From positions 1-62,076 of IMG/VR virus record IMGVR_UViG_3300028399_000007: a stretch of 62,076 nt of DNA; one strand, 5' to 3'. Source of the DNA: a virus. A model generated the notes under the pieces. That model did no database searches and was not told where the DNA came from. It saw only the letters and a list, made by a program, of their open reading frames with translations. A program made the position numbers and the translations under genes. Of this stretch, positions 16,608-60,485 are shown in pieces. How positions within the stretch are numbered: the stretch's first letter is position 1; every line of letters starts with the position of its first letter.

Positions 16608-18128
16608 CTACCTCCTGATATATGTAAAACTATTGGCTGACACTGTATAAGTACCCATTCCAATTCCAGTATTATAGACCATGTTCTCTGATCCAACCAT
16701 CCACGTAAGATCAGGGTGTGGTATAAACGGCACAGGCGGTTGCCAAGTAATAAAATCTACTGTATGCCTGTGCCTAGCTGACAGTAACTGCATTTTATGC
16801 AGTTGTGTCAATAAAACACTGTCAGATTTTATGAGATGCTTGGCTGAACTGCTTTTTAGGTAGTGGGTTTGCCCAATATCATTGGCGTCTGATATATGAA
16901 CATGCTTGGCGCTTTTTACAGATAGATTAGCATAGTACGACAGATAAACTATATCTGCTGTATGTCTGTGCCTAGCACTGCTTATGCCCAGTTCATGTGT
17001 CTGGTTTAGCGTATTTGAATCAGCCTTGTGCAAATGCTTGGCACTTTGTATGCGCAGATCACCAAGAACCTCTATGCCTATGTTATCTGCCTTATGTAAA
17101 TGCTTGGCACTGTTTACAGAAAGATTATGTACCTGTGATATTGCATTCTGATCTGCTTTTTGTAAATGCTTGGCGCTATCATTAAACAGATTGTGAGTTT
17201 GTACTAAATCATTCTGATCTGCTTTTTGTAAATGCTTGGCGCTATTTACGCTTAACTCATGCGTCTGGTTTAGTGCATTATTATCTGCTTTTTGTAAATG
17301 CTTGGCACTAGTGACAGTTAAATTATGCGTCTGTAAAATTTTGTTGCTATCTGCTTTTTGTAAATGCTTGGCAGATTTAACATCGAGGAAAGCAGCACTG
17401 TCTCCTGCCGTAAAAGCCTCAAACGCTATTACAGTAGCGGCAAATCTGGATACAGTCGTATTTTCTGACCATTCCTGCATTTCAATAAGGCCAGATACGA
17501 TTGACGATTTATAACTTGAAACTGTCCCGCCATAGGTACCGCCAAAATCCGCTATTTCAGTTTGCGCCGACCCCTGCGCTAATGCGCCTGTAGATTTTCC
17601 AGTCCAGCTAATGCCAAAGTAATCAACCACCAACACACTAGCAACGGGGCTAGTAACAGTAGCAGACATAATTTGCGACGATGAATAATTGCTAGTATCC
17701 GCTTTTTGGACGAAGATAGATGGATCAGCCTGTTTTACATTTGTTACTTCATGGACCTGCCAAATATGCCTTTGACACGCACCGTCATTATTGACGACTA
17801 TATCAATTACTGTAGAAGCCGCCGTTGTACTTGGCAATGCGCTGCCATATACAACGTAAACATCTGAAACAGACGAATAAGGACTTTCTTCAGCACGTAT
17901 CAAAGTGCCGACTTGATTAACGCCACTACCTATGCCGCTGTTTACACCGGGCGGATCTACTTGTATTGACGCTGTACCATTGTCAGGTTGGGATGAGTTG
18001 TCTTTTGAAAGATTTGAAATGACCAACATTCTGTTGGTATTTGAGGACGATATAACTACTGGTATGGTACTGCTTACAGTACCAAAAAGATTGGACGTAC
18101 CCAGTAGCTTTACTGCTGCAAATGCCAC
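16608..18128 (-). CDS. Virion protein with 20-residue SAKHLQKAD repeats
   Basis: 506 residues. Residues 1-255 form a beta-rich domain. About ten copies of a 20-residue unit follow (SAKHLQKADQNDLVQTHNL type; variants SAKHLHKAD, SARHRHTAD), then a short tail domain (PHPDLTWMVGSENM). The H-x-H-x-A-D core occurs in uncharacterised repeat proteins of phages. Histidine and aspartate spacing suggests metal binding or a solenoid. A short relative lies at 28042-28431. Surface fibre or capsid decoration is likely. Confidence 0.7.
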   Translation of the reverse strand: MAFAAVKLLGTSNLFGTVSSTIPVVISSSNTNRMLVISNLSKDNSSQPDNGTASIQVDPPGVNSGIGSGVNQVGTLIRAEESPYSSVSDVYVVYGSALPSTTAASTVIDIVVNNDGACQRHIWQVHEVTNVKQADPSIFVQKADTSNYSSSQIMSATVTSPVASVLVVDYFGISWTGKSTGALAQGSAQTEIADFGGTYGGTVSSYKSSIVSGLIEMQEWSENTTVSRFAATVIAFEAFTAGDSAAFLDVKSAKHLQKADSNKILQTHNLTVTSAKHLQKADNNALNQTHELSVNSAKHLQKADQNDLVQTHNLFNDSAKHLQKADQNAISQVHNLSVNSAKHLHKADNIGIEVLGDLRIQSAKHLHKADSNTLNQTHELGISSARHRHTADIVYLSYYANLSVKSAKHVHISDANDIGQTHYLKSSSAKHLIKSDSVLLTQLHKMQLLSARHRHTVDFITWQPPVPFIPHPDLTWMVGSENMVYNTGIGMGTYTVSANSFTYIRR

Positions 18129-30327: not shown

Positions 30328-33300
30328 CTAAGTCCCAAGTACCTTGATTTCTTTAACTGTAGCAGGTTTTTTGCCAAGTAGGCGGTATCTAGTTTCGTCA
30401 CCACAATTATGAACAATCGCACCGCTACGTAAAATAAAATGATGCGCATCAGGTACAGTTAAACAATACACATCATGCTTGCCTGATCTCTCTATTCTTA
30501 CGACCCCAACGCGCACTACATGGCCTGCTACAGCATCTAGTTTTTTGATATTTGTTAACAATGAATCTATTACCACATACTGCGCATATTCTTTCAACGT
30601 TATCGACGCCTGATCTAACCCTATACCTTGTTTTGCAAGCATTGGAACAGAATTTCGATGTTTTCTTACCGGCAATTTTAACCATATATTTTTTACCGCA
30701 CATGACACACTCTTTTTCAATCTCTCTATTAAGTGCACTGGCACAGTTTTTTTCGTACTGTTCCTTATGCCATTTTCTTCCTTCTTCTGAGCTATGCCAT
30801 TTCTTAGCTTGCTTACAAGCGTTTTTTTGATTTCTTTTAAGACGTTCCTTATTTTTCTCGCACATCCCATGAATGCGTAAATGCTTATCAGCCTCAATGA
30901 CTTCCAAATTATCAATGTCATTGTTTGCCCTGTTACCGTCAATATGGTGTACGTGGTATCCATTGGGTATTTTGCCGTGGTATTTTTCCCATACAACCCT
31001 ATGCAACCTTTTACCATTTTTCTGAAAATAGCTGCCACATAAATAATACCTTTCGCCACAAAATTCTTGGATTGTGCTGCTAATTTCTTTAACGTACATT
31101 TTTTATGTTCCTCATTTACCCCTGCAACAAAAATACAGTGCCCTACATTTTTTAAGTGCCGTGCTTCTACCCATCCTTGATCTGTAAAAAATAAATGATC
31201 TGGTGTACAACAAACACAAGACCCATCTTCAAAAAATACTTTTATAGTATCAGCATTGCTTTCAATCATCCTGCAATTTTCAAACTTTTTATAGCCGTCA
31301 ATTGTCAAAATCTTTGCACCGCTATTGCACAATGATTTTATAGGAATGAATCCTTTATCAGTTGCTATCTCCTCATCACCGTGAAAACAATGATCCTCAG
31401 CATCCGTGTCCACATCCTCGCGGTTCTTTTCCGCCCGTGGCAATACCGGCACAGTACGTATAAACCCATCATTACAAGTATTAAACACGAATAATCCCGG
31501 CTCTTCCATAGGCAATTCCAAGGATGCTGCTAACCGTGTACGCAATAGTTCCCATCCCGATACGCGCGATCCTGACGATTTATTAGCTTCTGTCCATTTA
31601 ACACCTACTGCACGCATATCATCTGCAATACAGTTGTCATTCTGATTGTCATAAATAGAGCTATCCGCTGGACCCGGTTTTACGCGACCGTATATGCCCA
31701 TCATCTTTTCCCGCTCTATGATCCCCTTAGCAATATCCTTGGCATTCATTTTCAAACCAACATTAGGTTCGCCTTTTTTCCATCCGTACCATTCACCGAT
31801 GCGGAACAATGTTTTTGCAGGCCACGCTCTTTTAGTGCCGTCGCGCAATATGGCTTCCGTACCATCGCTTTCCGCCCACCAGCCTACCGAAAACGGTCTG
31901 CTACTGCCCCAGTCAAATGATCGATCTATGTACCAGCTATCAGGGATCTTAAACGGCTCAATCACATGCACACTACGATCCCATACATCATCGAACATGC
32001 CGCCGCTAACAATGTCCCAATCACCCTCCAACATGGCACGGACCAGTTCAGGATCGCCAAGGCCGCTCAACCTGTCCTTATAGTCAGGATCATCAATCAT
32101 CATGGTCGGATTATCACTAAGGAACGCGGGGATGAACTGGCGCAACATACCGCCTTCCTTTTTTGGCATCCTGATTATCGTGTTTGGTTGTGCAATGTTT
32201 ACAAAATCCGCCTTTACCCAGTTATGACCTATGCCACCGGGGTTACTGCTATTTATGATCCTTGGAAAGCGATCTTTGTATTTATCAGGTAACACCAGAC
32301 CCGGCGCACGGACACGTGATCGCAAATAGGCGTAAATCGTTTTTGTGAACATAGTCAATTCATCTACTAACAATAAATGTATTTCAGAACCGTGGTAGTT
32401 CATGCGATCTTTTTCATGCTGGCAATGGCACAAAAAAATCTTGCTATTGTTCCAGAATGTGATAATGCCCTTACCCGTATTTATTTTTGCATGCCCTTCA
32501 TCGATCCAATCTGATAACAGGTTAAAAAATCCCTTTGGTCCCTCCATGTGGTTCTTCCACAGTTCAGGGTATGTGCGGCGAAACAAATAAACCTGTAAAC
32601 CGGGGATTTCCGCACACCACATGATCGCAGCTATGCGCATAAGGTGACTATTATGCGTAACGATAAAATCATTTGTTATGTATAAATTGTTTGGGTGAGA
32701 AACAGAAATACAGACAGTTTCACAATGCCCGGCGGGTTCTATCTTATCAAGATAAAGCCCCATTGACTGATGTTGTTTACTATTGCATCTCTCGGCTTTG
32801 CGCTTAACACGGAACATCCTTTGTGGTTCACGGATCTTTATCCTGAGCGTATAGGCTTTTTGCCCTTTTCTTTTTTCACCTTTATACACATAATTCGGTA
32901 TTTTTGATTTTAATGAAACAATAGCGCCTAACGATCTTGCCAAGTGCCTTACGTCATCAGCCAATTGCTTTGATACCGTTGTAAAATAGCAATCACCATC
33001 CTTATCAACAGTCCCGTCTGTGTCCATTAGACCCTGTAGTAAAGACCATCGATCTTCAACGCCGCCAAACAAGTAAATGCGCGGAATAAACTTACTATTT
33101 GCCAAACATCCGTAAACACCAAGATCAACCAAGTCATCATAAACAAGTTTTTTCGGTACCGTATATGACTTGGCTTTGTTGTTATTGTTTTTGCCGACAG
33201 GATTTAGCTTTTTATCATAGTTGTAAAAATCTGATAAAATGTTATTTATGTTATCAACTATCTCACGATCAGGCGTACAAAAAGTAGTAACGCCACTACG

Positions 33301-33846
33301 CAAGCACCCATCTCCTAACAACACGCCAAGCAAATACGGTTCTACGGATCGCTTAACGTGTTTTTTTGGTCCTGCATTCTCTCCATGTACGTTAAATGCA
33401 CATGGCTCAGATATAACAGGGATCGCGATCCTGTTTTTGCGTTTTGTGTTGCGCTGGTAAAACTCGTAAATTTCTTTTGTTGTCCATTTACGCGCCGATG
33501 CTTCACCATTAACAGGCACATTACCTATCTTCCTGCTTTTACCTGTCGTCCAAGCAAGCCAAATATGATCGCTATCAACAATGGTTTCACTACCATCGGA
33601 CCACGTTAACTTGTAAACTTTTTGCTTGCCTTTCGGGTAATAGCCAATAATTTTTTGCACTGTTCCATCAGTTGCACAAATTGCGTCGCCTACCTTTACA
33701 TCCCTAAATTTTCTCCACCCAAACGGCGTTAAGATAAAATCATCAAATCTCTGCCCTTTTCCGGGGCCTGCGCTTCCGCCGAAGAGGATTTCAGTTGCGG
33801 GGGAGTTGAAAACGTAGGCTTGCTTTGGATGAAATGAAAGATCCAT
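30328..33846 (-). CDS. Terminase large subunit with two inteins
   Basis: 1172 codons from ATG 33846 (one base after the previous stop; TTG 33873 is an upstream alternative). Extein about 475 residues after removal of inteins at 32650-33756 and 30406-31389. Walker A FGGSAGPGK+S is interrupted by intein 1. Walker B (LLLVDELTMF) and the nuclease aspartates (FDWGSSRPFSVGWW, GPADSSIYD) are in the middle extein. The final extein begins CGDETRYRLL. It packages and cuts DNA. Function requires both splicing events. Confidence 0.92.
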   Translation of the reverse strand: MDLSFHPKQAYVFNSPATEILFGGSAGPGKGQRFDDFILTPFGWRKFRDVKVGDAICATDGTVQKIIGYYPKGKQKVYKLTWSDGSETIVDSDHIWLAWTTGKSRKIGNVPVNGEASARKWTTKEIYEFYQRNTKRKNRIAIPVISEPCAFNVHGENAGPKKHVKRSVEPYLLGVLLGDGCLRSGVTTFCTPDREIVDNINNILSDFYNYDKKLNPVGKNNNNKAKSYTVPKKLVYDDLVDLGVYGCLANSKFIPRIYLFGGVEDRWSLLQGLMDTDGTVDKDGDCYFTTVSKQLADDVRHLARSLGAIVSLKSKIPNYVYKGEKRKGQKAYTLRIKIREPQRMFRVKRKAERCNSKQHQSMGLYLDKIEPAGHCETVCISVSHPNNLYITNDFIVTHNSHLMRIAAIMWCAEIPGLQVYLFRRTYPELWKNHMEGPKGFFNLLSDWIDEGHAKINTGKGIITFWNNSKIFLCHCQHEKDRMNYHGSEIHLLLVDELTMFTKTIYAYLRSRVRAPGLVLPDKYKDRFPRIINSSNPGGIGHNWVKADFVNIAQPNTIIRMPKKEGGMLRQFIPAFLSDNPTMMIDDPDYKDRLSGLGDPELVRAMLEGDWDIVSGGMFDDVWDRSVHVIEPFKIPDSWYIDRSFDWGSSRPFSVGWWAESDGTEAILRDGTKRAWPAKTLFRIGEWYGWKKGEPNVGLKMNAKDIAKGIIEREKMMGIYGRVKPGPADSSIYDNQNDNCIADDMRAVGVKWTEANKSSGSRVSGWELLRTRLAASLELPMEEPGLFVFNTCNDGFIRTVPVLPRAEKNREDVDTDAEDHCFHGDEEIATDKGFIPIKSLCNSGAKILTIDGYKKFENCRMIESNADTIKVFFEDGSCVCCTPDHLFFTDQGWVEARHLKNVGHCIFVAGVNEEHKKCTLKKLAAQSKNFVAKGIIYVAAIFRKMVKGCIGLYGKNTTAKYPMDTTYTILTVTGQTMTLIIWKSLRLISIYAFMGCARKIRNVLKEIKKTLVSKLRNGIAQKKEENGIRNSTKKTVPVHLIERLKKSVSCAVKNIWLKLPVRKHRNSVPMLAKQGIGLDQASITLKEYAQYVVIDSLLTNIKKLDAVAGHVVRVGVVRIERSGKHDVYCLTVPDAHHFILRSGAIVHNCGDETRYRLLGKKPATVKEIKVLGT
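30406..31389 (-). other. Intein 2 of large terminase, with nested out-of-frame HNH gene
   Basis: 328 residues from Cys1 (CFHGDEEIAT) to Asn (GAIVHN) followed by Cys+1. Block B is CTPDHLFFT, block F KHDVYCLTV, block G AIVHN-C: a class 1 intein. Flanking extein is EDH / CGDETRYR. Only about 97 N-terminal and 25 C-terminal residues look like splicing domain; the roughly 200 residues between are the frame-shifted shadow of the HNH gene at 30473-31099. Confidence 0.88.
30473..31099 (-). CDS. HNH homing endonuclease nested in intein 2
   Basis: 208 residues in a different frame from the terminase but on the same strand. It has its own site (GAGGAA, 8 bases before ATG 31099). HNH_3-type core (LHRVVWEKYHGKIPNGYHVH, HIDGNRANNDIDNLEV) is followed by two CxxC...CxxxC zinc fingers (CVMCGKKY, FCSNACKTR; CAVCGNRF, CCSRPCSAR). 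Presumably cuts intein-less terminase genes so the intein can copy itself. Same finger type as the 35914-36618 HNH protein. Confidence 0.9.
   Translation of the reverse strand: MYVKEISSTIQEFCGERYYLCGSYFQKNGKRLHRVVWEKYHGKIPNGYHVHHIDGNRANNDIDNLEVIEADKHLRIHGMCEKNKERLKRNQKNACKQAKKWHSSEEGRKWHKEQYEKNCASALNREIEKECVMCGKKYMVKIAGKKTSKFCSNACKTRYRVRSGVDNVERICAVCGNRFIVNKYQKTRCCSRPCSARWGRKNREIRQA
32650..33756 (-). other. Intein 1 of large terminase (class-3-like, LAGLIDADG)
   Basis: 369 residues inserted inside Walker A, between GPGK and S. It begins GQRFDDFILTPFGW, so position 1 is Gly rather than Cys or Ser. Block B reads DSDHIWLAW, block F ETVCISV (Cys at F:4) and block G IVTHN before Ser+1. A non-nucleophilic first residue with W, C and T at those positions fits class 3 inteins. 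LAGLIDADG motifs: LLGVLLGDG and LLQGLMDTDG. Confidence 0.87.
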
Positions 33847-33847
33847 A

Positions 33848-34033
33848 TCACTCGTCCGATTCTTTAGTGACAAATAAATACTTGCCGCATTCCGTGCATT
33901 TGATACGGCTTACATATCTGTGATCTCGCAAATCAACAAACAGGTAAAAAGAAAACGATCCACAACTACATTGGAAACAATAATCTTCAAATAATTCAAC
34001 TACGTTATCTTCATTCTTGTTCTTTTTCGCCAT
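33848..34033 (-). CDS. Small zinc-ribbon protein between terminase genes
   Basis: 61 residues from ATG 34033 (several nearby in-frame ATGs upstream are possible). Cysteines CQCSCG and CTECGK form a likely zinc ribbon. It overlaps the small terminase end and precedes the large terminase by one base. Perhaps an accessory packaging protein. Confidence 0.6.
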   Translation of the reverse strand: MAKKNKNEDNVVELFEDYCFQCSCGSFSFYLFVDLRDHRYVSRIKCTECGKYLFVTKESDE

Positions 34034-35927: not shown

Positions 35928-36618
35928 AAACCATCCTCCTTACTTTTGTAAGCACAATTTCTTGAAATTGTCTTAAATTAGTACCAAAGTATCTTTTTAT
36001 ATCCTCTTTACAGCCTGCATTAACAAGTTCAAGCGTTATATTTTCAATTACTTTATGATGCTTTACACAAAGCGGTATAAGATTATCTAAGCCATTATCC
36101 TTAGTAATCCTATAAGGGACAATATGATGTACTTGTAAATTTTTTGTAGTTCCGCATAAAGCACAAAAAGGAAAATTACTAATTACAGAATCACGTATTG
36201 ATTTCCACCGACTACCATAATTTCTAGTTCTCTTAGTATCACATAACCATTCATTATAGCATTTGCGACAACAAAAATTTCCAGAACTGTTTGTTTTACC
36301 TGTCAACCTGCTTTTTTGTACATAAAATTCAGATTTACAATTTTTACATTGTCTTAAAACTTTTTTCATTTCATTAAATTTTTTATAACAATCCTTATTG
36401 CAAAAATTTCTTGCATTTATTTGTTTTTTGTATCTTTCGTTTAATTTACCGCAATACATACAATTAAAAGTGACAAACTCTGCCCGTCTAGGTTTTGGGG
36501 CCTTGCCTCCTATAGAACTTGAACAATGTTTGCATCTAAGAGGATTAGAATCCTTGCGCACATATCTTGATTGACCACAGTCAATACAAACTACCTTCTT
36601 TACCCAACCATCAGGCAT
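35914..36618 (-). CDS. HNH endonuclease with multiple zinc fingers
   Basis: 234 residues from ATG 36618 (GGAGG 6 bases upstream). Three CxxC...CxxxC fingers (CIDCGQ/CKHC, CMYCGK/CNKDC, CKNCKS/CRKC) precede an HNH domain (CALCGTTKNLQVHHIVPYR, DNLIPLCVKHH). It is the first leftward late gene. It may act with the terminase, as HNH proteins in several siphoviruses do, or be a free-standing homing nuclease. Confidence 0.85.
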   Translation of the reverse strand: MPDGWVKKVVCIDCGQSRYVRKDSNPLRCKHCSSSIGGKAPKPRRAEFVTFNCMYCGKLNERYKKQINARNFCNKDCYKKFNEMKKVLRQCKNCKSEFYVQKSRLTGKTNSSGNFCCRKCYNEWLCDTKRTRNYGSRWKSIRDSVISNFPFCALCGTTKNLQVHHIVPYRITKDNGLDNLIPLCVKHHKVIENITLELVNAGCKEDIKRYFGTNLRQFQEIVLTKVRRMVCGHC

Positions 36619-36744
36619 ATAATCCTCCAACTTGTCACAACGCCTGCGCCAAGTATGGCACCTGCCCCTGCCCGTTGCCTACCCGTGACAATAACGCCCC
36701 ACAACGGCTGTCAGGCGGCCTGACGGGCTGTGCCGCAGCCACGA

Positions 36745-36759
36745 AAAATCAATGACTTA
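36745..36759 (+). promoter_or_regulatory. Dyad operator-like motif, copy 3
   Basis: AAAATCAATGACTTA; the 17-mer AAATCAATGACTTACAA is identical to the complement of the copy at 2631-2645. It lies about 130 bp upstream of the first late gene start, in the position expected for a switch site. Confidence 0.55.
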
Positions 36760-37035
36760 CAAGCGTCACCAGTTAAAAACCGTCACCCATTTAATCACCC
36801 AATTTTTTTGTCGTAACGTACTGAAAAATATAGTTAATCACCCAGTCACCCGTTTTATACTAAATAAAAAATATATAAAAAATAGGGGATAGGGATAGTA
36901 GGGGATCCCTGATCCTCGTCTATATTAAAGTTTGTGCTGTTTTTGGGAAAAAAGGGTGACAGCCGCAACACTATGAATTAAAAAGCAAAATACGATTTTT
37001 CAAAAATGCGTGGCACCCGAAAAACGGGTGCCAAA

Positions 37036-37123
37036 TGGCCAAAAGTGTGAAAAAGTGGGTTTTCGGCCATTTTGGCCATACTGCTAGAAAAAATCTAGTT
37101 TGGCGTTTTTTCACACTTTGCCA
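37036..37123. repeat. Long inverted repeat with internal hairpins
   Basis: TGGCCAAAAGTGTGAAAA (37036 onward) is repeated in reverse complement as TTTTTTCACACTTTGCCA (37106-37123). Between the arms are GGCCATTTTGGCC and CTAGAAAAAATCTAG. Just before them, GGCACCCG-AAAAA-CGGGTGCC (37012-37032) forms a perfect hairpin. Such clustering suggests an origin or a strong regulatory structure. Confidence 0.65.
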
Positions 37124-37141
37124 AAAAAAATTGGTGACAAG

Positions 37142-37170
37142 TTGCAAGCCAATTTGAATCGCGCTATGGT
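37142..37170 (+). promoter_or_regulatory. Promoter of the primase-helicase transcript
   Basis: TTGCAA (37142-37147), 17-bp spacer, TATGGT (37165-37170). The -35 box is identical to that of the other early promoters. The transcript would start near 37178 and run into the leader hairpin. Confidence 0.6.
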
Positions 37171-37180
37171 TGCACCCATG

Positions 37181-37246
37181 GGCTAGTTACAACACATGGT
37201 TTGGTTTACAATAGGTTTTGTAGCACCAACCATCTGTTGACTAGCC
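37181..37246 (+). promoter_or_regulatory. Leader stem upstream of primase-helicase
   Basis: GGCTAGT, CAACA and ATGGTT on the 5' arm (37181-37204) pair in order with the 3' arm (37226-37246: AACCAT, TGTTG, ACTAGCC), giving about 18-20 bp with small bulges and a loop near 21 nt. It is followed by a terminator before the start codon. Confidence 0.6.
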
Positions 37247-37269
37247 CTCGCAGTATGTGCTGTGCTATG

Positions 37270-37309
37270 AAAAGCCCCTTGCACCTACTGTGTGCTTGGG
37301 GCTTTTTTT
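37270..37309 (+). terminator. Terminator/attenuator before the primase-helicase start
   Basis: AAAAGCCCC (37270-37278) pairs with GGGGCTTTT (37298-37306), followed by T residues. It ends 15 bases before ATG 37324, so transcription from 37142 must read through it. This suggests attenuation or antitermination of the replication operon. Confidence 0.75.
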
Positions 37310-37323
37310 ATGGGGATTGGTTT

Positions 37324-39432
37324 ATGGGGTTTGGATCAGAAACGGAACCTGCCGCGCCAACGAAGCGCGAGATCCAACAATTTCAAAAAGCCATGCGCGA
37401 TGATCTGGCCCGTAGTGGTCTGATCGCATCCCATCTCAAAAAACTTCGCTATGAAGTTCTAACCCCGCAAGACTCACTATCTGAATTTGATTGGCCTAAC
37501 TGGTCATACCGTATCCCTTACATCGATCCAATCACAGGGGAAGATACAGGGTACCATCGCTATCGTTTCATGGAGGAGGTGGCTAATAGCAAGGGGAAAA
37601 TCGTCAAGTACATGCAACGCAGCGGTACAACACCGAGGCTTTATTTCCCACCTGTCTATACTCCAAAAAAATGGGCAACAATACTAAATGATCCAAGCCA
37701 ATTTATTGTGTTCACAGAAGGCGAGAAGAAAGCCGCTAAAGCCTGCGTGGAAGGATTGCCTACTATTGCCCTAGGTGGTGTATCATCATTTAGCTGCAAA
37801 CGATTAGGGCAACGGTTAATAGATGACTTCAAACTGATCACGCTAAAGGATCGCCGCGTTGAAATTTGTTTTGATTCAGATTTCCGCACCAATGAAGATG
37901 TGATGCGGGAACTGCGGCGATTTGCCAAGGAACTCTATCGCGAAGGTGCGGTAGTCCTGTTCCGCTGGTTACCTGACGACTATGACAAAATCGGCTTGGA
38001 CGATTTTTTTGCCGCTGGTGCGCAGTTGACAGATTATGAACAACTGCCCTTTGACGCTTATGAACAATGCAAGGAAGTATTGGAACTCAACAACGAGCTA
38101 GCCTATATAAAAAACGTAAACGCATTTTATAATATAAAAACAGGGACGTGGTACAAAACTAAACCCGCCTTGGTGGATATGGGGTATGCCAACCGCGTTA
38201 TCATCGATCCTGAGACAGATCGTGAGCATAACGTCGCTGCCTTATGGTTAAAATCCAAGATGCGCCGCACCCATAAAAGGCTGGTATATGAACCGATGCC
38301 AATCTATGAGCCGTTTGAATTCCCGTTGATAACAGACGACAATGAATTGAACTTGTGGCGTGGTTGGGGCGCTTACCCTGAGCCGGGCAACTTGGATGAT
38401 TTCAACAGGCTATTGGATTACGTGTTCGGTGATGATCCGGATCAACGTGAAAATTTTTTGAAGTGGGCGGCATACCCGATCCAGTATCCGGGCACCAAAC
38501 TGACCACATCCTTTATGATCCAGAGCCCGTTACAGGGATCGGGCAAAAGTTCACTAGGGTTAATACTAGGTGATATATACGGCGGTAATTTCAGTAACGT
38601 AGATGCAGGCAGTCTATTTGAAAGTTTTAACTCATGGGCACGTAACAAGCAGTTTGTACTGGGTGATGAGATCACAGCGGATGCGTTCAATAAAAGACGT
38701 AGCTCAGATAAGATAAAGAACATGATCACGCGCGAAACGATCAGCATAAACGAAAAATACAAGCCCATTTACGAAGTAAAAGACTGTATCAATTACCTGT
38801 TAACGTCCAACCACCCCGATGCGCTGTACTTGGAGGAGTTTGACCGGCGCTTTTATGTGCATACCATCATGGCAAAATCCGTCCCGCCCAATTTAGGCAA
38901 ATGGGTAGATCGTTTCCGGTTTGGCAATGGTCAAAAAGGCCGATCCGCACTGATGCATTACCTGTTAACCGAAGTCGATGTATCTGATTTCAACCCCAAG
39001 GGCGAGGCCAAGGATTCATTTTCCAAGGAAATGATGCGCGAAGCGGGGCGGTCCGATCTGGAACAATGGGCTTGGCAACTGGCTAATGATCCTGACGCGG
39101 CGCTGCACATAACCGGCAAGACGTTTGATCGGGATATTTATACAACGGCGCAATTGCTAAAGATATACGATCCTTTGGGTAAAAAGAACGTGACGCTGCA
39201 TGCGCTTGGCAAGGCGCTGAAAAAATACCAGTTATTCTACAAACAAATCAGGTTTGATAACGGTAAACGCGAAAAATTGATCCCTATACGCAACAGGGAC
39301 AAGTGGATGAAATGCAAGTCCGCTAAATGGGCCGAACATTATGAACAATCCAAGGTCCATGATCTTGATACACGGCGCACGCCGATCAATGAGAAAAACG
39401 GGAATAAAAACAAGAAAAAAGATCAGACATAG
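37324..39432 (+). CDS. Primase-helicase (DUF3854 toprim + DUF5906 helicase)
   Basis: 702 residues from ATG 37324 (GGGGA site). N-terminal DUF3854-like toprim region (FTEGEKKAAKACVEGLPTIA, EICFDSDFRTNEDV). The C-terminal superfamily 3-like helicase has Walker A QGSGKSSLG, Walker B-like QFVLGDEITADAF, and YLLTSNHPDALYLEEFDRRF. Likely primes and unwinds DNA for the phage family A polymerase. First gene of the rightward replication operon. Confidence 0.88.
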   Translation: MGFGSETEPAAPTKREIQQFQKAMRDDLARSGLIASHLKKLRYEVLTPQDSLSEFDWPNWSYRIPYIDPITGEDTGYHRYRFMEEVANSKGKIVKYMQRSGTTPRLYFPPVYTPKKWATILNDPSQFIVFTEGEKKAAKACVEGLPTIALGGVSSFSCKRLGQRLIDDFKLITLKDRRVEICFDSDFRTNEDVMRELRRFAKELYREGAVVLFRWLPDDYDKIGLDDFFAAGAQLTDYEQLPFDAYEQCKEVLELNNELAYIKNVNAFYNIKTGTWYKTKPALVDMGYANRVIIDPETDREHNVAALWLKSKMRRTHKRLVYEPMPIYEPFEFPLITDDNELNLWRGWGAYPEPGNLDDFNRLLDYVFGDDPDQRENFLKWAAYPIQYPGTKLTTSFMIQSPLQGSGKSSLGLILGDIYGGNFSNVDAGSLFESFNSWARNKQFVLGDEITADAFNKRRSSDKIKNMITRETISINEKYKPIYEVKDCINYLLTSNHPDALYLEEFDRRFYVHTIMAKSVPPNLGKWVDRFRFGNGQKGRSALMHYLLTEVDVSDFNPKGEAKDSFSKEMMREAGRSDLEQWAWQLANDPDAALHITGKTFDRDIYTTAQLLKIYDPLGKKNVTLHALGKALKKYQLFYKQIRFDNGKREKLIPIRNRDKWMKCKSAKWAEHYEQSKVHDLDTRRTPINEKNGNKNKKKDQT

Positions 39433-39455
39433 TATTTGATATTATCACCTATTAA

Positions 39456-39885
39456 GATCGTGCCATGTAGTGAGAAAGTAACGTCAGGATCGAGCGATCC
39501 ACTTTGCCGAATGTGCCAATAAGCGGGAGTGAGACAGGTCCGTTGACAGGGACAAAGAAATGTATCGAGACAAGCCGATTTATAGTAACAGTGGTGATGA
39601 TCGAACCATGTTCTATTATAGTGACACGCCACGAGATTGAGACACCCTTATTGTCAGTAACACTAACTGTGATCGAAACACCTATGCGCAGCGTACCATC
39701 GAGGTGGATTGAAACATAATTAACGATAGTAACATGCTGCTTGATTGAAACGGAGTACATAACAGTAACACGGTGCTTGATTGAAACACTGTACACGATA
39801 GCAACACGTTGGTTGATTGAGACACGTCCTTTGATAGTTCGGATACTGAGATCGACCCATACACTTTGACAGTAGCAAAGCAACA
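39456..39885 (+). repeat. Tandem array 1 of a degenerate 36-bp repeat
   Basis: Units begin at 39527, 39563, 39599, 39635, 39671, 39707, 39743, 39779, 39815 and 39850: steps of exactly 36 bp, except the last (35). Consensus: GATTGAAACAC, 7-8 variable bases, GATAGTAACAC, 7-8 variable bases, so each unit is two similar 18-bp halves. Two looser units precede 39527. Open frames on both strands follow from the period being a multiple of three; a stop (39717) breaks the best plus-strand frame. Confidence 0.85.
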
Positions 39886-39900
39886 GAGGAATTTTGAGAT

Positions 39901-40125
39901 ATGCACGTTGATCCCATAATTGACCAACACGCGCCAGATTGCCTGTTAGTGCAGTTCCACGCGATCTGTTGCAAGTGGGAGAAGTGCGTTTATTTCGGAA
40001 CTAGGAAAGAAAAAGCCGGGTATTATCGTGAATTGAAGCAGTTCTATAAAAAACACGGATTGCCTGATGACACGATAGCCCCGCCTTGCAATTGTGGTAG
40101 AAAAATATGCTATCTATTAACTTGA
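39901..40125 (+). CDS. Small cysteine-rich protein between repeat arrays
   Basis: 74 residues. Cysteines CCKWEKC and CNCGRKIC suggest zinc binding; the middle is basic (FGTRKEKAGYYRELKQFYKK). A weak AGAGGA site precedes ATG 39901. Unknown family. Its place between the two 36-bp arrays makes it a candidate array-binding protein. Confidence 0.6.
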   Translation: MHVDPIIDQHAPDCLLVQFHAICCKWEKCVYFGTRKEKAGYYRELKQFYKKHGLPDDTIAPPCNCGRKICYLLT

Positions 40126-40138
40126 AAGAGGTACCAAG

Positions 40139-40492
40139 ATGCGTAGAAAAAAGAATGCCGAGACTGCGGAAAGTACGTTATTTTCAGAAACACAAACGCG
40201 AACCGTTTACACTGTGGAGATCAAGAACCCGTACAACGTGTGGGAGGACGTGAGGAACCCCAGCTATATGGTGCCTGTGATCCCCAGTAGCGTTGCATCC
40301 TGTAATGACAACCACCCGCTGATGAAGCATCACAGGATGTTGACCTATGATCAGGCCATGGCGATAGCATGGTCGATCAAGTCGCAAAACGAGCCTTCTG
40401 TGCGCGGCGTGCGGATCGTGGGCTATGAAATGGAATGGTCCGTCAAGGCCAATAGTGCGCCGGTCTATGAGCAGGAGATCGGCGGAGACTAG
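40139..40492 (+). CDS. Unknown phage protein between repeat arrays
   Basis: 117 residues after a GAGGTACC site. A basic N-terminus (RRKKNAETAESTLF) and a strand-rich middle (YTVEIKNPYNVWEDVRNPSY), then a helix (TYDQAMAIAWSIKSQ). No family recognised. Its stop is 41 bases before array 2. Confidence 0.65.
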   Translation: MRRKKNAETAESTLFSETQTRTVYTVEIKNPYNVWEDVRNPSYMVPVIPSSVASCNDNHPLMKHHRMLTYDQAMAIAWSIKSQNEPSVRGVRIVGYEMEWSVKANSAPVYEQEIGGD

Positions 40493-40533
40493 GCTAATGA
40501 TCAGGCAGGGTGTCTGAGTGTACCGGAACAGAT

Positions 40534-40893
40534 AATCGAGTCGCGAAGATGTATGGTAACAATGGCAATGATCGAGGCAAAAAAAGATAGCGTGCCGTTG
40601 AATATGATCGAGCCTTTGAAAGCGATTGGAACACGTGAATTGAGCTAAACAACCGTTTAGATAGTGACACAGTTTATGATTGAAACAGGTGCCCCGATAA
40701 CGACAGGCGCGAAGATTGAAACAAAAAATCCGATAGCATCACAATCCCGAATTGAAACGCAGAAAGATAGTGCACCACCGAATACGATTGAAACAGTGGA
40801 AAAGACAGTATCAGAAACGACGATTGAGACAAAAAGGCAAATTGCACCACTATCGCTGATCGAACCACCACCAGTTATTGCAACGGATATGGG
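40534..40893 (+). repeat. Tandem array 2 of the same 36-bp repeat
   Basis: Box A positions: 40534, 40570, 40606, 40642, 40678, 40714, 40750, 40786, 40822, 40858, all exactly 36 bp apart. Box B-like halves lie 18 bp after most of them (40624, 40660, 40696, 40732, 40804, 40840, 40876). Core GATTGAAACA is the same as in array 1 and the orientation is the same. The plus-strand IET frame has stops at 40648 and 40658. Confidence 0.87.
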
Positions 40894-40904
40894 GAGTGCT
40901 ATTT

Positions 40905-41282
40905 ATGGGTTATGGGTACATCGGCCAACCGTACAGCCATGAGGATGAGGCGGTGCGGCAGAATCGCTATGAGTTTGCATTGTCATTTGTGGCTGCCAAG
41001 ACACGTGCCGGGGAGATAGTCTATTCCCCTATCGTGCACTTCCACAATGCGGCTGTAGAACACAACCTGCCGGAAGGTGGGGCGATCTGGCGGCCTGTGA
41101 ACAGGGCTATGCTATTGGCCGCCAACAGGTTAATCGTGTTGGCCCTGCCCGGCTGGTCCTGCTCGCCGGGGCTTGAGTTTGAGATGAAGCTGGCGCGTGA
41201 GCACAGGATCCCGATCAAGTACGTGATCCCTGATCACAAGATGCAGACCCAGCTAGGCGTGGAACTGATCACATTTGATTAA
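40905..41282 (+). CDS. DUF1937-like protein, nucleoside deoxyribosyltransferase fold
   Basis: 125 residues from ATG 40905 (GGGGAG site at the end of array 2). GYIGQPYSHEDEAVRQNRYE, YSPIVHFHNAAVEHNLP, LAANRLIVLALPGWSCSPG and EFEMKLAREHRIPIKYVIP match the DUF1937 pattern (Toll/deoxyribosyltransferase-like Rossmann fold). May act on nucleotides or NAD-like ligands; substrate unknown. Confidence 0.78.
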   Translation: MGYGYIGQPYSHEDEAVRQNRYEFALSFVAAKTRAGEIVYSPIVHFHNAAVEHNLPEGGAIWRPVNRAMLLAANRLIVLALPGWSCSPGLEFEMKLAREHRIPIKYVIPDHKMQTQLGVELITFD

Positions 41283-41473
41283 CCCTTGTCAAATGGATCA
41301 GCATCGACCGTTTCAAGCGCCAGCGCCTCAACCTGCTTGGCATAATCCAGCATTTCCTCAATAGCATCCACGTCGCTGTAGTAAGCCGTTTCCTCGTCCA
41401 GCACAGTGCTGGCATGCGCCTTGATTTCCTGTGCCAGCTTGGCAATGGCTTTGATATGTTGTGTTGATCTCAT
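41279..41473 (-). CDS. Small acidic helical protein
   Basis: 64 residues, two helices (HIKAIAKLAQEIKAH and DAIEEMLDYAKQVEALALET), acidic tail. Last gene of the leftward early island; its stop overlaps the convergent DUF1937-like gene by 4 bases. Unknown family. Confidence 0.6.
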   Translation of the reverse strand: MRSTQHIKAIAKLAQEIKAHASTVLDEETAYYSDVDAIEEMLDYAKQVEALALETVDADPFDKG

Positions 41474-43180: not shown

Positions 43181-43255
43181 GCGTATGTAGCTCAGTTGGT
43201 AGAGCGCATCCCCTGAAAGGATGGTGTCGCTGGTTCAAATCCAGCCTAACGCGCA
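43181..43255 (+). tRNA. tRNA-like domain inside the large RNA (anticodon position UGA)
   Basis: D arm GCTC/GAGC, anticodon stem CATCC/GGATG with loop CCTGAAA, T arm GCTGG-TTCAAAT-CCAGC are intact. The acceptor GCGTATG/CTAACGC has two internal mismatches, the 3' end reads GCA rather than CCA, and position 33 is C instead of the near-universal U. The short variable loop does not fit a serine tRNA. It may be a structural tRNA mimic rather than a decoding tRNA. Confidence 0.5.
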
Positions 43256-48641: not shown

Positions 48642-48896
48642 ATGACAAAATACACTGATCTAAAACCGCCTTTTGATCCACGTTTGGACGTGGATTCACA
48701 ACGATATGTTGTTTATAACGTGGAAGAAAAACGTGTCATGCGTAGTACGCAAGATATTTCACAAGCCGTGCGCATTTGTGTGCGGCTAAATGGTGACAAG
48801 GAAATCGCTGAATACGCCATTGCCGACAAGGATGCAAATACTTACCTTAGTGGCTGGCGCAAATTGCGGGAGGTGAAAAATGACTACAGCCAATGA
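48642..48896 (+). CDS. Unknown early protein
   Basis: 84 residues from ATG 48642, 7 bases after AAGG; ATG 48636 is too close to that site. LDVDSQRYVVYNVE and VRICVRLNGDKEIAEYAI suggest a mixed alpha/beta fold. Overlaps the next start by 17 bases. Confidence 0.6.
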   Translation: MTKYTDLKPPFDPRLDVDSQRYVVYNVEEKRVMRSTQDISQAVRICVRLNGDKEIAEYAIADKDANTYLSGWRKLREVKNDYSQ

Positions 48897-49710
48897 ACTA
48901 GAAAGTGCCAGCCGGATCGCCAATAGCACGATCAAGCAAATCAAGGAACGCGGTACTTGTAGCCGTGAAGAAATCCGGTTCCTTGTGGATGCCTATTACC
49001 AAGTACAAAAGATGCGGATCGCACTGGGTAATCAGATATTTGCATTGACTGAATCCAATGAACCGCATGAGATCAGTGACTGGCTGTTCAGCCAGTTCAA
49101 ACTGATCGAAAGCCAGATCAGCCGATCCCTGAAAGCATTTTGTGAGACCACAAAGCCCGGTCAATGGCTATTGTCAATCACGGGCATAGGCCCTGTGTTG
49201 GCGGCCAATTTTCTTGCCCATCTTGACGTGACAAAATCAGAAACAGCGGGCGGATTCTGGCGGTTCGCCGGGTTGGATCCAACACTGGAATGGAAGAAAG
49301 GTTGTAAGCGTCCGTTTAACGCGCGGCTTAAAACGGCTTGTTGGAAAGCGGGTGAATCATTTTGCAAGGTACAGAACCGTGATTCGGACGTTTACGGCAA
49401 GGTCTATGCTGAGCGTAAGGCACTGGAAATACAACGCAATGACAGGCTTGAATTTGCCGATCAGGCGAAGGAAAAACTGGAGAAGTTTAACATCGGCAAG
49501 GACACGGATGCCTACAAGCATTATGCTGAGGGTAAGCTGCCGCCTGCGCATATCGACCAGCGTGCCAAGCGTTATGCGGTTAAGCTATTCCTGTCACATC
49601 TGCATCATGTAATGTATGAATGCGAGCATGGGCGCAAACCACCCAAACCCTACGTCATAGAACACATGGGGCATGCGCATTACGTCGCCCCGCCAAACTG
49701 GCCATTGTAA
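48880..49710 (+). CDS. Protein with IS110-type Transposase_20 helix-hairpin-helix domain
   Basis: 276 residues, GGGAGG site. An N-terminal coiled coil (1-90) and QWLLSITGIGPVLAANFLAH, GGFWRFAGLDPTLEWKKG and ARLKTACWKAGESF match the C-terminal domain of IS110/IS116 recombinases. The N-terminal RuvC-like DEDD domain is absent, so it is not a full transposase. Phages often carry this stand-alone form; DNA-structure binding is likely. Confidence 0.75.
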   Translation: MTTANELESASRIANSTIKQIKERGTCSREEIRFLVDAYYQVQKMRIALGNQIFALTESNEPHEISDWLFSQFKLIESQISRSLKAFCETTKPGQWLLSITGIGPVLAANFLAHLDVTKSETAGGFWRFAGLDPTLEWKKGCKRPFNARLKTACWKAGESFCKVQNRDSDVYGKVYAERKALEIQRNDRLEFADQAKEKLEKFNIGKDTDAYKHYAEGKLPPAHIDQRAKRYAVKLFLSHLHHVMYECEHGRKPPKPYVIEHMGHAHYVAPPNWPL

Positions 49711-58909: not shown

Positions 58910-58986
58910 GTGAGTATAGCTCAGTCTGGTAGAGCACTCGTTTTGGGAAAGAGTGGTCGCAGGTTCAAATCCTGCTGCCCGCACCA
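58910..58986 (+). tRNA. tRNA-Pro (UGG)
   Basis: 77 nt ending in encoded CCA. D arm GCTC/GAGC, anticodon loop TTTGGGA (anticodon TGG), T arm GCAGG-TTCAAAT-CCTGC. Acceptor GTGAGTA/TGCCCGC has one A-C mismatch and two G-T pairs; anticodon stem CTCGT/AAGAG has one G-A mismatch. The cloverleaf is clear but slightly degenerate. Confidence 0.82.
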
Positions 58987-59603: not shown

Positions 59604-59759
59604 GTTTATGGCAGCCTGCCGGGCGAAAACCGCAAACGCGGCCCCTCAGTCTGGAACGCTGTACCGGAGTTGCACGCCGGTATGCACCGGGATACCCCGG
59701 CTCCGAGTGCGCCAGCGTTGGGTGAATGCATAAGTAGTCCGGCAGGTTGCCGCCATTTA
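59604..59759 (+). repeat. Structured intergenic element A
   Basis: Begins GTTTATGGCAGCCTGCCGG and ends CCGGCAGGTTGCCGCCATTT; CCTGCCGG pairs perfectly with CCGGCAGG. Internal stems CCGC/GCGG, AACGCTG/CAGCGTT, TACCGG/CCGGTA, CCGGG/CCCGG make a branched fold. Same termini as element B but a different core. Followed by the pentapeptide gene. Confidence 0.65.
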
Positions 59760-59771
59760 GTGAGTAAAAAA

Positions 59772-60485
59772 ATGAGTTTAGAACATTTATATAAATTTGA
59801 TTGGTACGTGTCACATCAAGCGTGGCTCAACAAAGAAGGCTATATGGCCCATGATCATCGTGGGACTAAGCCGCAAAAAGCTGATCTGCGCGGCACTGAT
59901 CTGCGCGGTGCTGATCTACTAGGTGCTAAGCTGTGCGATGCCAATTTACGTGATGCCAATTTACGTGATGCAAATTTGCGTGGGTCTAATCTGCGCAATG
60001 CCGATCTAAGCTGCGCCAATTTTAACAATGCTGATCTGTGCTTTGCCAGTCTATACGACACAAATTTACACTATGCTAATCTGCGTCATGCCAATCTAAG
60101 CTACGCTAATTTGTGCGGCGCTGATCTGCGCCATGCTGATTTGCGCGGCGCTGATCTGCGCCATGCTGATTTGCGTGATACCGATCTAAGCTACGCTAAT
60201 TTGTGCGGCGCTGATCTGCGCTATGCTGATTTGCGCGGCGCTGATCTGCGCCATGCTGATTTGCGTAACACCATCGGTAACGGACGTGAGATCATTACAA
60301 TCTTAACAGATAAATGGATAGTTAATATAACAAAAGAATTCATGACAGTTGGTTGTGAGCATTACAGCATTAAAGACTGGATGAGCTTTGATGATGATCG
60401 TATTTCTAAGATGGACCCCTGCGCACTTCATTGGTCGCGTATCTGGAAGCCGATTATTAAACAAATAATAGAGGCAACCAAATAG
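59772..60485 (+). CDS. Pentapeptide-repeat protein
   Basis: 237 residues from ATG 59772. Residues about 38-165 are A(D/N)LxX pentapeptides (ADLRGADLRHADLRDTDLSY style), roughly 25 units forming a right-handed quadrilateral helix. A C-terminal domain follows (GREIITILTDKWIVNITKEF, DWMSFDDDRISKMDP). Some such proteins mimic DNA and block gyrase; here the role is unknown. The DNA shows a 15-bp periodicity. Confidence 0.85.
   Translation: MSLEHLYKFDWYVSHQAWLNKEGYMAHDHRGTKPQKADLRGTDLRGADLLGAKLCDANLRDANLRDANLRGSNLRNADLSCANFNNADLCFASLYDTNLHYANLRHANLSYANLCGADLRHADLRGADLRHADLRDTDLSYANLCGADLRYADLRGADLRHADLRNTIGNGREIITILTDKWIVNITKEFMTVGCEHYSIKDWMSFDDDRISKMDPCALHWSRIWKPIIKQIIEATK

What the first reader, a model, noticed from the sequence alone, without database searches (positions are those of the whole stretch)
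39456..40893. Two long arrays of a degenerate 36-bp repeat built from 18-bp halves, flanking two small genes after the primase-helicase
Seen: box GATTGAAAC or a variant recurs every 36 bp for nine to ten steps in 39527-39850 and ten in 40534-40858. A related box (GATAGTAAC-like) sits midway, so the basic period is 18 bp. Both arrays have the same orientation. The 7-8 bases between boxes are hypervariable while the boxes and the spacing are kept, so selection acts on box and distance. Inference: protein-binding iterons (replication origin, partition or packaging site) or a repeated RNA element; the cysteine-rich 39901 protein between the arrays could be the binder. The box equals the 3' end typical of several CRISPR repeats, but neither the repeat hairpin nor 30-40-bp spacers exist.
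Basis: partly seen in the sequence, partly recalled or inferred. Interest (0 to 1): 0.88.

Follow-up and report, generated by a model that had tools for sequence, protein, structure and literature searches.

The report
Phage TIGR guide-RNA arrays with distant TasA
The two repeat arrays are TIGR guide-RNA arrays, a CRISPR-like kind of RNA-guided DNA-targeting system described in 2025, carried by a phage whose matching guide-binding protein (TasA) lies 8 kb away; the kind is known, but what such systems do for phages is still an open question.

Summary
The arrays are real. Two same-strand, non-coding arrays of ten 36-bp units each (39527-39885 and 40534-40893) are built from alternating 10-nt repeats, edge GATTGAAACA and loop GATAGTAACA, separated by 8-nt spacers that never repeat. 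This is the anatomy of dual-repeat TIGR arrays of the TIGR-Tas systems (PMC12045711): edge, spacer A, loop, spacer B, giving a 36-nt guide. The matching protein is also in the window, about 8 kb downstream, at 48880-49710: 276 aa, about 52% identical to proteins sitting directly beside the same kind of array in other viruses, with sequence and fold matches to solved TasR and TasH. It has no nuclease domain, so it is a TasA. Of 80 viral relatives of this protein, 68 have such an array in the fetched flank, 61 within 400 bp. Of twelve records picked by array sequence alone, eleven carry tas. Unusual here: no array beside tasA, no terminator, rather degenerate repeats. Arrays far from tas also occur in other phages. 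No targets were found in this phage or in 3.2 Mb of other sequence. New member of a known kind.

The parts
39420..39526 (+). decayed 5' end of TIGR array 1 (about three poorly matching units)
   Evidence: profile chain reaches back to 39420
39527..39885 (+). TIGR array 1: ten units, edge GATTGAAACA-like + 8-nt spacer A + loop GATAGTAACA-like + 8-nt spacer B (one 7-nt slip at 39843-39849)
39901..40125 (+). 74-aa Cys-rich protein between the arrays, no known family; no evidence that it belongs to the system
40139..40492 (+). 117-aa protein between the arrays, no known family; no evidence that it belongs to the system
40534..40893 (+). TIGR array 2: ten units of the same design, ending just before the start of the DUF1937 gene (ATG at 40905)
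48880..49710 (+). tasA: 276-aa solo Nop-domain protein, the likely binder of the guide RNAs
   Evidence: tblastn/phmmer from array-adjacent proteins E<=1e-90; PDB TasR 9mty E=1.9e-14 and TasH 21kl E=2.1e-8; Foldseek, all 11 hits with E<=0.001 are TasH/TasR complexes
37201..39432 (+). primase-helicase (DUF3854, DUF5906, VapE-like) directly upstream of array 1; context only

Best explanation
The two arrays are TIGR dual-repeat arrays. Shown here by sequence: the edge / 8-nt spacer A / loop / 8-nt spacer B anatomy with a 36-bp period, and a TasA protein in the same phage. Inferred from the published systems: the arrays are transcribed left to right, probably within the transcript of the neighbouring replication genes since no terminator follows them; the transcript is cut within each edge repeat into 36-nt tigRNAs; a TasA dimer binds each through the repeats; and spacers A and B pair with opposite strands of one DNA site of about 16 bp. 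Because TasA lacks a nuclease, the ribonucleoprotein would bind and bend target DNA rather than cut it. Most likely use (weakest step, about 50%): holding down competing mobile elements or host DNA by blocking replication or transcription. TasA would act on these arrays in trans, from a gene 8 kb away.
For: Periodicity and unit layout. The same array design lies directly beside tas in L086 and L090/L035. Window protein 48880-49710 is 51-53% identical to those Tas proteins. PDB sequence matches to TasR and TasH. AlphaFold2 model with pLDDT 90.7 matches only TasH/TasR complexes at E<=0.001, then IS110-type recombinases. 80 viral tas relatives: 61 have an array within 400 bp, on the coding strand; several further ones show 35-, 37- or 38-bp periods beside tas. 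Of 12 records picked by array pattern alone, 11 carry tas. In the wider set 94% of spacers are 8 nt. Published design and 36-nt processing: PMC12045711.
Against: No array lies next to tasA in this window, and no terminator follows either array, although both are typical. Repeats are more degenerate than in L086. Guides have no match in the phage itself. Expression, processing and binding are untested.
Confidence: 0.93

Rival explanations
1. Iterons: double-stranded DNA binding sites for a replication initiator, partition or packaging protein near the replication origin.
For: Arrays follow the primase gene; cumulative GC skew has its minimum near 36-38 kb, though that is also where gene orientation switches.
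Against: An 18-bp step does not keep sites on one DNA face; two alternating repeat types with hypervariable spacers; the same arrays sit beside a Nop-domain gene in many other viruses.
Confidence: 0.03
2. Relic arrays: former TIGR arrays, separated from their tas gene by rearrangement and now decaying, no longer making guides.
For: Degenerate repeats, decayed 5' end of array 1, one 7-nt slip, distance from tasA, no terminator.
Against: Core positions A2, G5 and C9 of the repeats are nearly invariant and spacing is exact over almost all of both arrays; tasA is an intact open frame; other phages keep remote arrays together with an adjacent one.
Confidence: 0.12
3. A coding repeat (antisense open frame of 143 aa over array 1).
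For: 39452-39883 on the minus strand is open.
Against: Array 2 is not open over its whole length in any frame; spacer columns show no codon pattern; the frame stays open because the repeat has no stop in that frame, as also in L086.
Confidence: 0.01

Closest known systems
TIGR-TasA systems with dual-repeat arrays (PMC12045711), e.g. the Flavonifractor plautii TasA locus
   Same: Alternating edge and loop repeats, short split spacers, 36-nt unit, solo Nop-domain protein
   Different: 8-nt rather than 9-nt spacers; AT-rich GATTGAAACA/GATAGTAACA repeats; both arrays 8 kb from tasA; no terminator found; array processing untested here
TIGR-TasH of Salicola phage CGphi29 (PDB 21kl and others)
   Same: Phage-borne; 16-nt total guide (two 8-nt spacers) per the paper; homologous Nop domain (26% identity by tblastn)
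   Different: TasH has an N-terminal HNH nuclease, absent here
TIGR-TasR (PDB 9mty)
   Same: Homologous Nop/coiled-coil protein (E=1.9e-14; Foldseek E=1.7e-6)
   Different: RuvC nuclease at the N-terminus, absent here; UG and CCA repeat ends versus GA and ACA here
IS110-family transposases with bridge RNA
   Same: Shared RNA-binding domain (Pfam Transposase_20; Foldseek E about 0.01)
   Different: No DEDD domain seen; a guide array instead of a single bridge RNA
CRISPR arrays
   Same: Regular repeats with unique spacers; the box resembles the 3' end of some CRISPR repeats
   Different: Two alternating 10-nt repeats, 8-nt spacers, Nop-domain protein instead of Cas proteins

Membership tests
TIGR-Tas (dual-repeat array) | Two distinct alternating 8-12-nt repeats | tested here: met
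   10-nt GATTGAAACA and GATAGTAACA alternate over ten units in each array
TIGR-Tas (dual-repeat array) | Short variable spacers (9 nt typical; 8 nt in SpTIGR) | tested here: met
   8-nt spacers, all different, pairwise identity at chance level
TIGR-Tas (dual-repeat array) | Tas protein with Nop domain in the same genome | tested here: met
   48880-49710:
TIGR-Tas (dual-repeat array) | Array directly upstream and/or downstream of tas (typical, not strictly defining) | tested here: not met
   nearest array ends 8 kb before tasA; remote arrays occur in other tas phages, usually besides an adjacent one
TIGR-Tas (dual-repeat array) | Terminator after the array (typical, not strictly defining) | tested here: not met
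   none found in 39300-41300; a terminator-like hairpin follows the array in L090
TIGR-Tas (dual-repeat array) | Processing to 36-nt tigRNA and dual-strand targeting | not testable with these tools
   needs RNA sequencing and binding assays
TasA subtype | Solo Nop-domain protein without RuvC or HNH | tested here: met
   276 aa; the model starts with helices, no nuclease family in Pfam
IS110 transposase | N-terminal DEDD catalytic domain | tested here: not met
   only Transposase_20 region matched; no N-terminal catalytic domain in the all-helical start of the model
CRISPR array | One repeat type of about 25-36 nt with spacers of similar size, and cas genes | tested here: not met
   10-nt repeats, 8-nt spacers; the associated protein is Tas, not Cas
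Replication iterons | Direct DNA repeats bound by a cognate initiator | tested here: inconclusive
   no initiator recognised among the neighbours tested; DNA binding cannot be tested here

The most novel reading that the evidence does not exclude
TIGR guide arrays are scattered over phage genomes and serve one tas gene in trans, so that different guide sets are made from different transcripts at different times of infection. This window, where all arrays are remote and follow the primase gene, would be a clear case; tas-centred surveys limited to 5 kb would miss such arrays.
Probability: 0.3. Interest if true: 0.6.

Novelty: new member of a known kind. Interest (0 to 1): 0.45.

Why it matters
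TIGR-Tas was described only in 2025, and the role, targets and spacer origin of nuclease-free TasA systems in phages are open questions. This phage shows that guide arrays can lie far from tas, so genome searches near tas undercount guides; array-first searching finds them. The extra guides, and the placement of arrays behind a replication gene, give a testable link to infection timing.

Tried and rejected
Relatives of the 39901, 40139 and primase proteins in viral contigs: none found. Primase relatives in named phages were fetched but did not lead to the identification. Rfam: only two tRNAs. The first pattern scan also brought in coding or simple repeats (L048, L028), which were set aside. 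Self-targets: best 14 of 16 matches, same as mispaired spacers. Targets among 3.2 Mb of fetched sequence for 4144 spacer pairs: 20 exact hits against 24 and 28 with shuffled pairing, so no signal. That scan assumed the geometry spacer A + 0-2 bp + reverse complement of spacer B, which I worked out from the 8-nt 3' overhangs in the paper, and it tested neighbouring spacers in both pairings. Sharing of window spacers with other arrays: 3 single 8-mers of 40, about chance. A weak match of the 41279-41473 minus-strand protein to the Tas N-terminus (E 2e-4) is probably a coiled-coil effect. Genome-wide target scans of single guides were not run, since chance hits would swamp a 16-nt query. No plasmid match to TasA; no near DNA relative of 38-50 kb among named phages.

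Full report
Observation. The periodicity is real and strong. Match rates at lag 36 (0.48) and lag 18 (0.43) exceed every shuffle (maximum 0.36), and the two arrays are the top places in the window for both lags. The 36-bp unit is a 10-nt repeat GATTGAAACA, 8 variable bases, a second 10-nt repeat GATAGTAACA, and 8 variable bases; ten units in each array. Repeat columns average 1.22 bits, spacer columns 0.11; all 39 spacers compared differ and are as unlike each other as composition predicts. The region is not convincingly coding.

Identification. A scan of viral contigs for three successive boxes found the same non-coding array in L086 and in L090/L035, in each case directly after a ~275-aa gene with a Nop / Transposase_20-like sequence. 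[quoted passage not shown] In L090 the array ends in GATTGCAAC followed by a terminator-like hairpin, so the GATTGAAACA type is taken as the edge repeat.

The protein. tblastn with the L086 and L090 proteins finds one strong relative in the window, 48880-49710, at E about 2e-94 and 2e-91. It is 52-53% identical to both. Sequence search of the PDB gives TasR 9mty (E=1.9e-14) and TasH 21kl (E=2.1e-8). The AlphaFold2 model (pLDDT 90.7) has TasH and TasR complexes as its only hits at E<=0.001, followed by IS621/ISCro4 recombinases. At 276 aa, with no nuclease family match, it is a TasA.

Relatives. Eighty viral tas relatives were kept. With the unit profile, 68 have an array in the fetched flank, 61 of them within 400 bp, on the tas coding strand; several of the remaining loci show a 35-, 36-, 37- or 38-bp period beside tas, while L164 is cut off and L192 and L193 showed no clear array. 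The most common repeats there are GAGCGAGCCA and GAGAGAACCA, of which the window's look like AT-rich variants.

What is unusual. In this window no array lies beside tasA; the nearest ends 8 kb before it. Remote arrays also occur in other tas phages: G037 has arrays from 11 to 82 kb on both strands with tas at 30-31 kb, and G036, G039, G040, G041 and G046 have arrays more than 5 kb away besides an adjacent one; G027 has arrays only at 2-6 kb downstream. The paper's neighbourhood search covered 5 kb on each side, so such arrays may have been undercounted; I could not read its supplement.

Mechanism. By the published rules, each guide would pair spacer A with one strand and spacer B with the other at one site. 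TasA would bind and, by analogy with TasR, bend the DNA without cutting. What it acts on is unknown: no site in the phage itself and no excess of sites in 3.2 Mb of fetched sequence. Competition with other mobile elements, or silencing of host DNA, is the most likely use and remains an inference; the authors of the TIGR paper list the same possibilities.

Judgement. Membership in TIGR-Tas is well supported on anatomy, protein family and association across viruses; two typical features (adjacency, terminator) are not met; processing and targeting were not testable. It is a new member of a known kind.

Noticed in passing
window 30328-33873 (-): Terminase large-subunit frame of 1181 aa carrying intein splicing and LAGLIDADG homing-endonuclease domains.
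   Followed up: partly
window 59670-60485 (+): Pentapeptide-repeat protein; explains the 15/30/45/90-bp tandem repeats there.
   Followed up: partly
window 17085-17372, inside the frame 16608-18128 (-): 66-bp tandem repeat, 4.4 copies, in a protein without PHROGs or Pfam match.
   Followed up: no
G037, G040, G046, G039, G036, G041 (viral records behind L198, L212, L242, L207, L199, L221): TIGR arrays scattered far from tas, in several records on both strands.
   Followed up: partly
viral records G022, G016, G024, G045, G036, G041: A stop codon is counted in the tas match region; could be broken genes, recoding or a match-boundary effect.
   Followed up: no
window 36000-38000: Cumulative GC-skew minimum where gene orientation switches, just before the primase; a candidate origin region.
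   Followed up: no
window 43181-43254 and 58910-58986: tRNA-Ser(TGA) and tRNA-Pro(TGG) genes.
   Followed up: no
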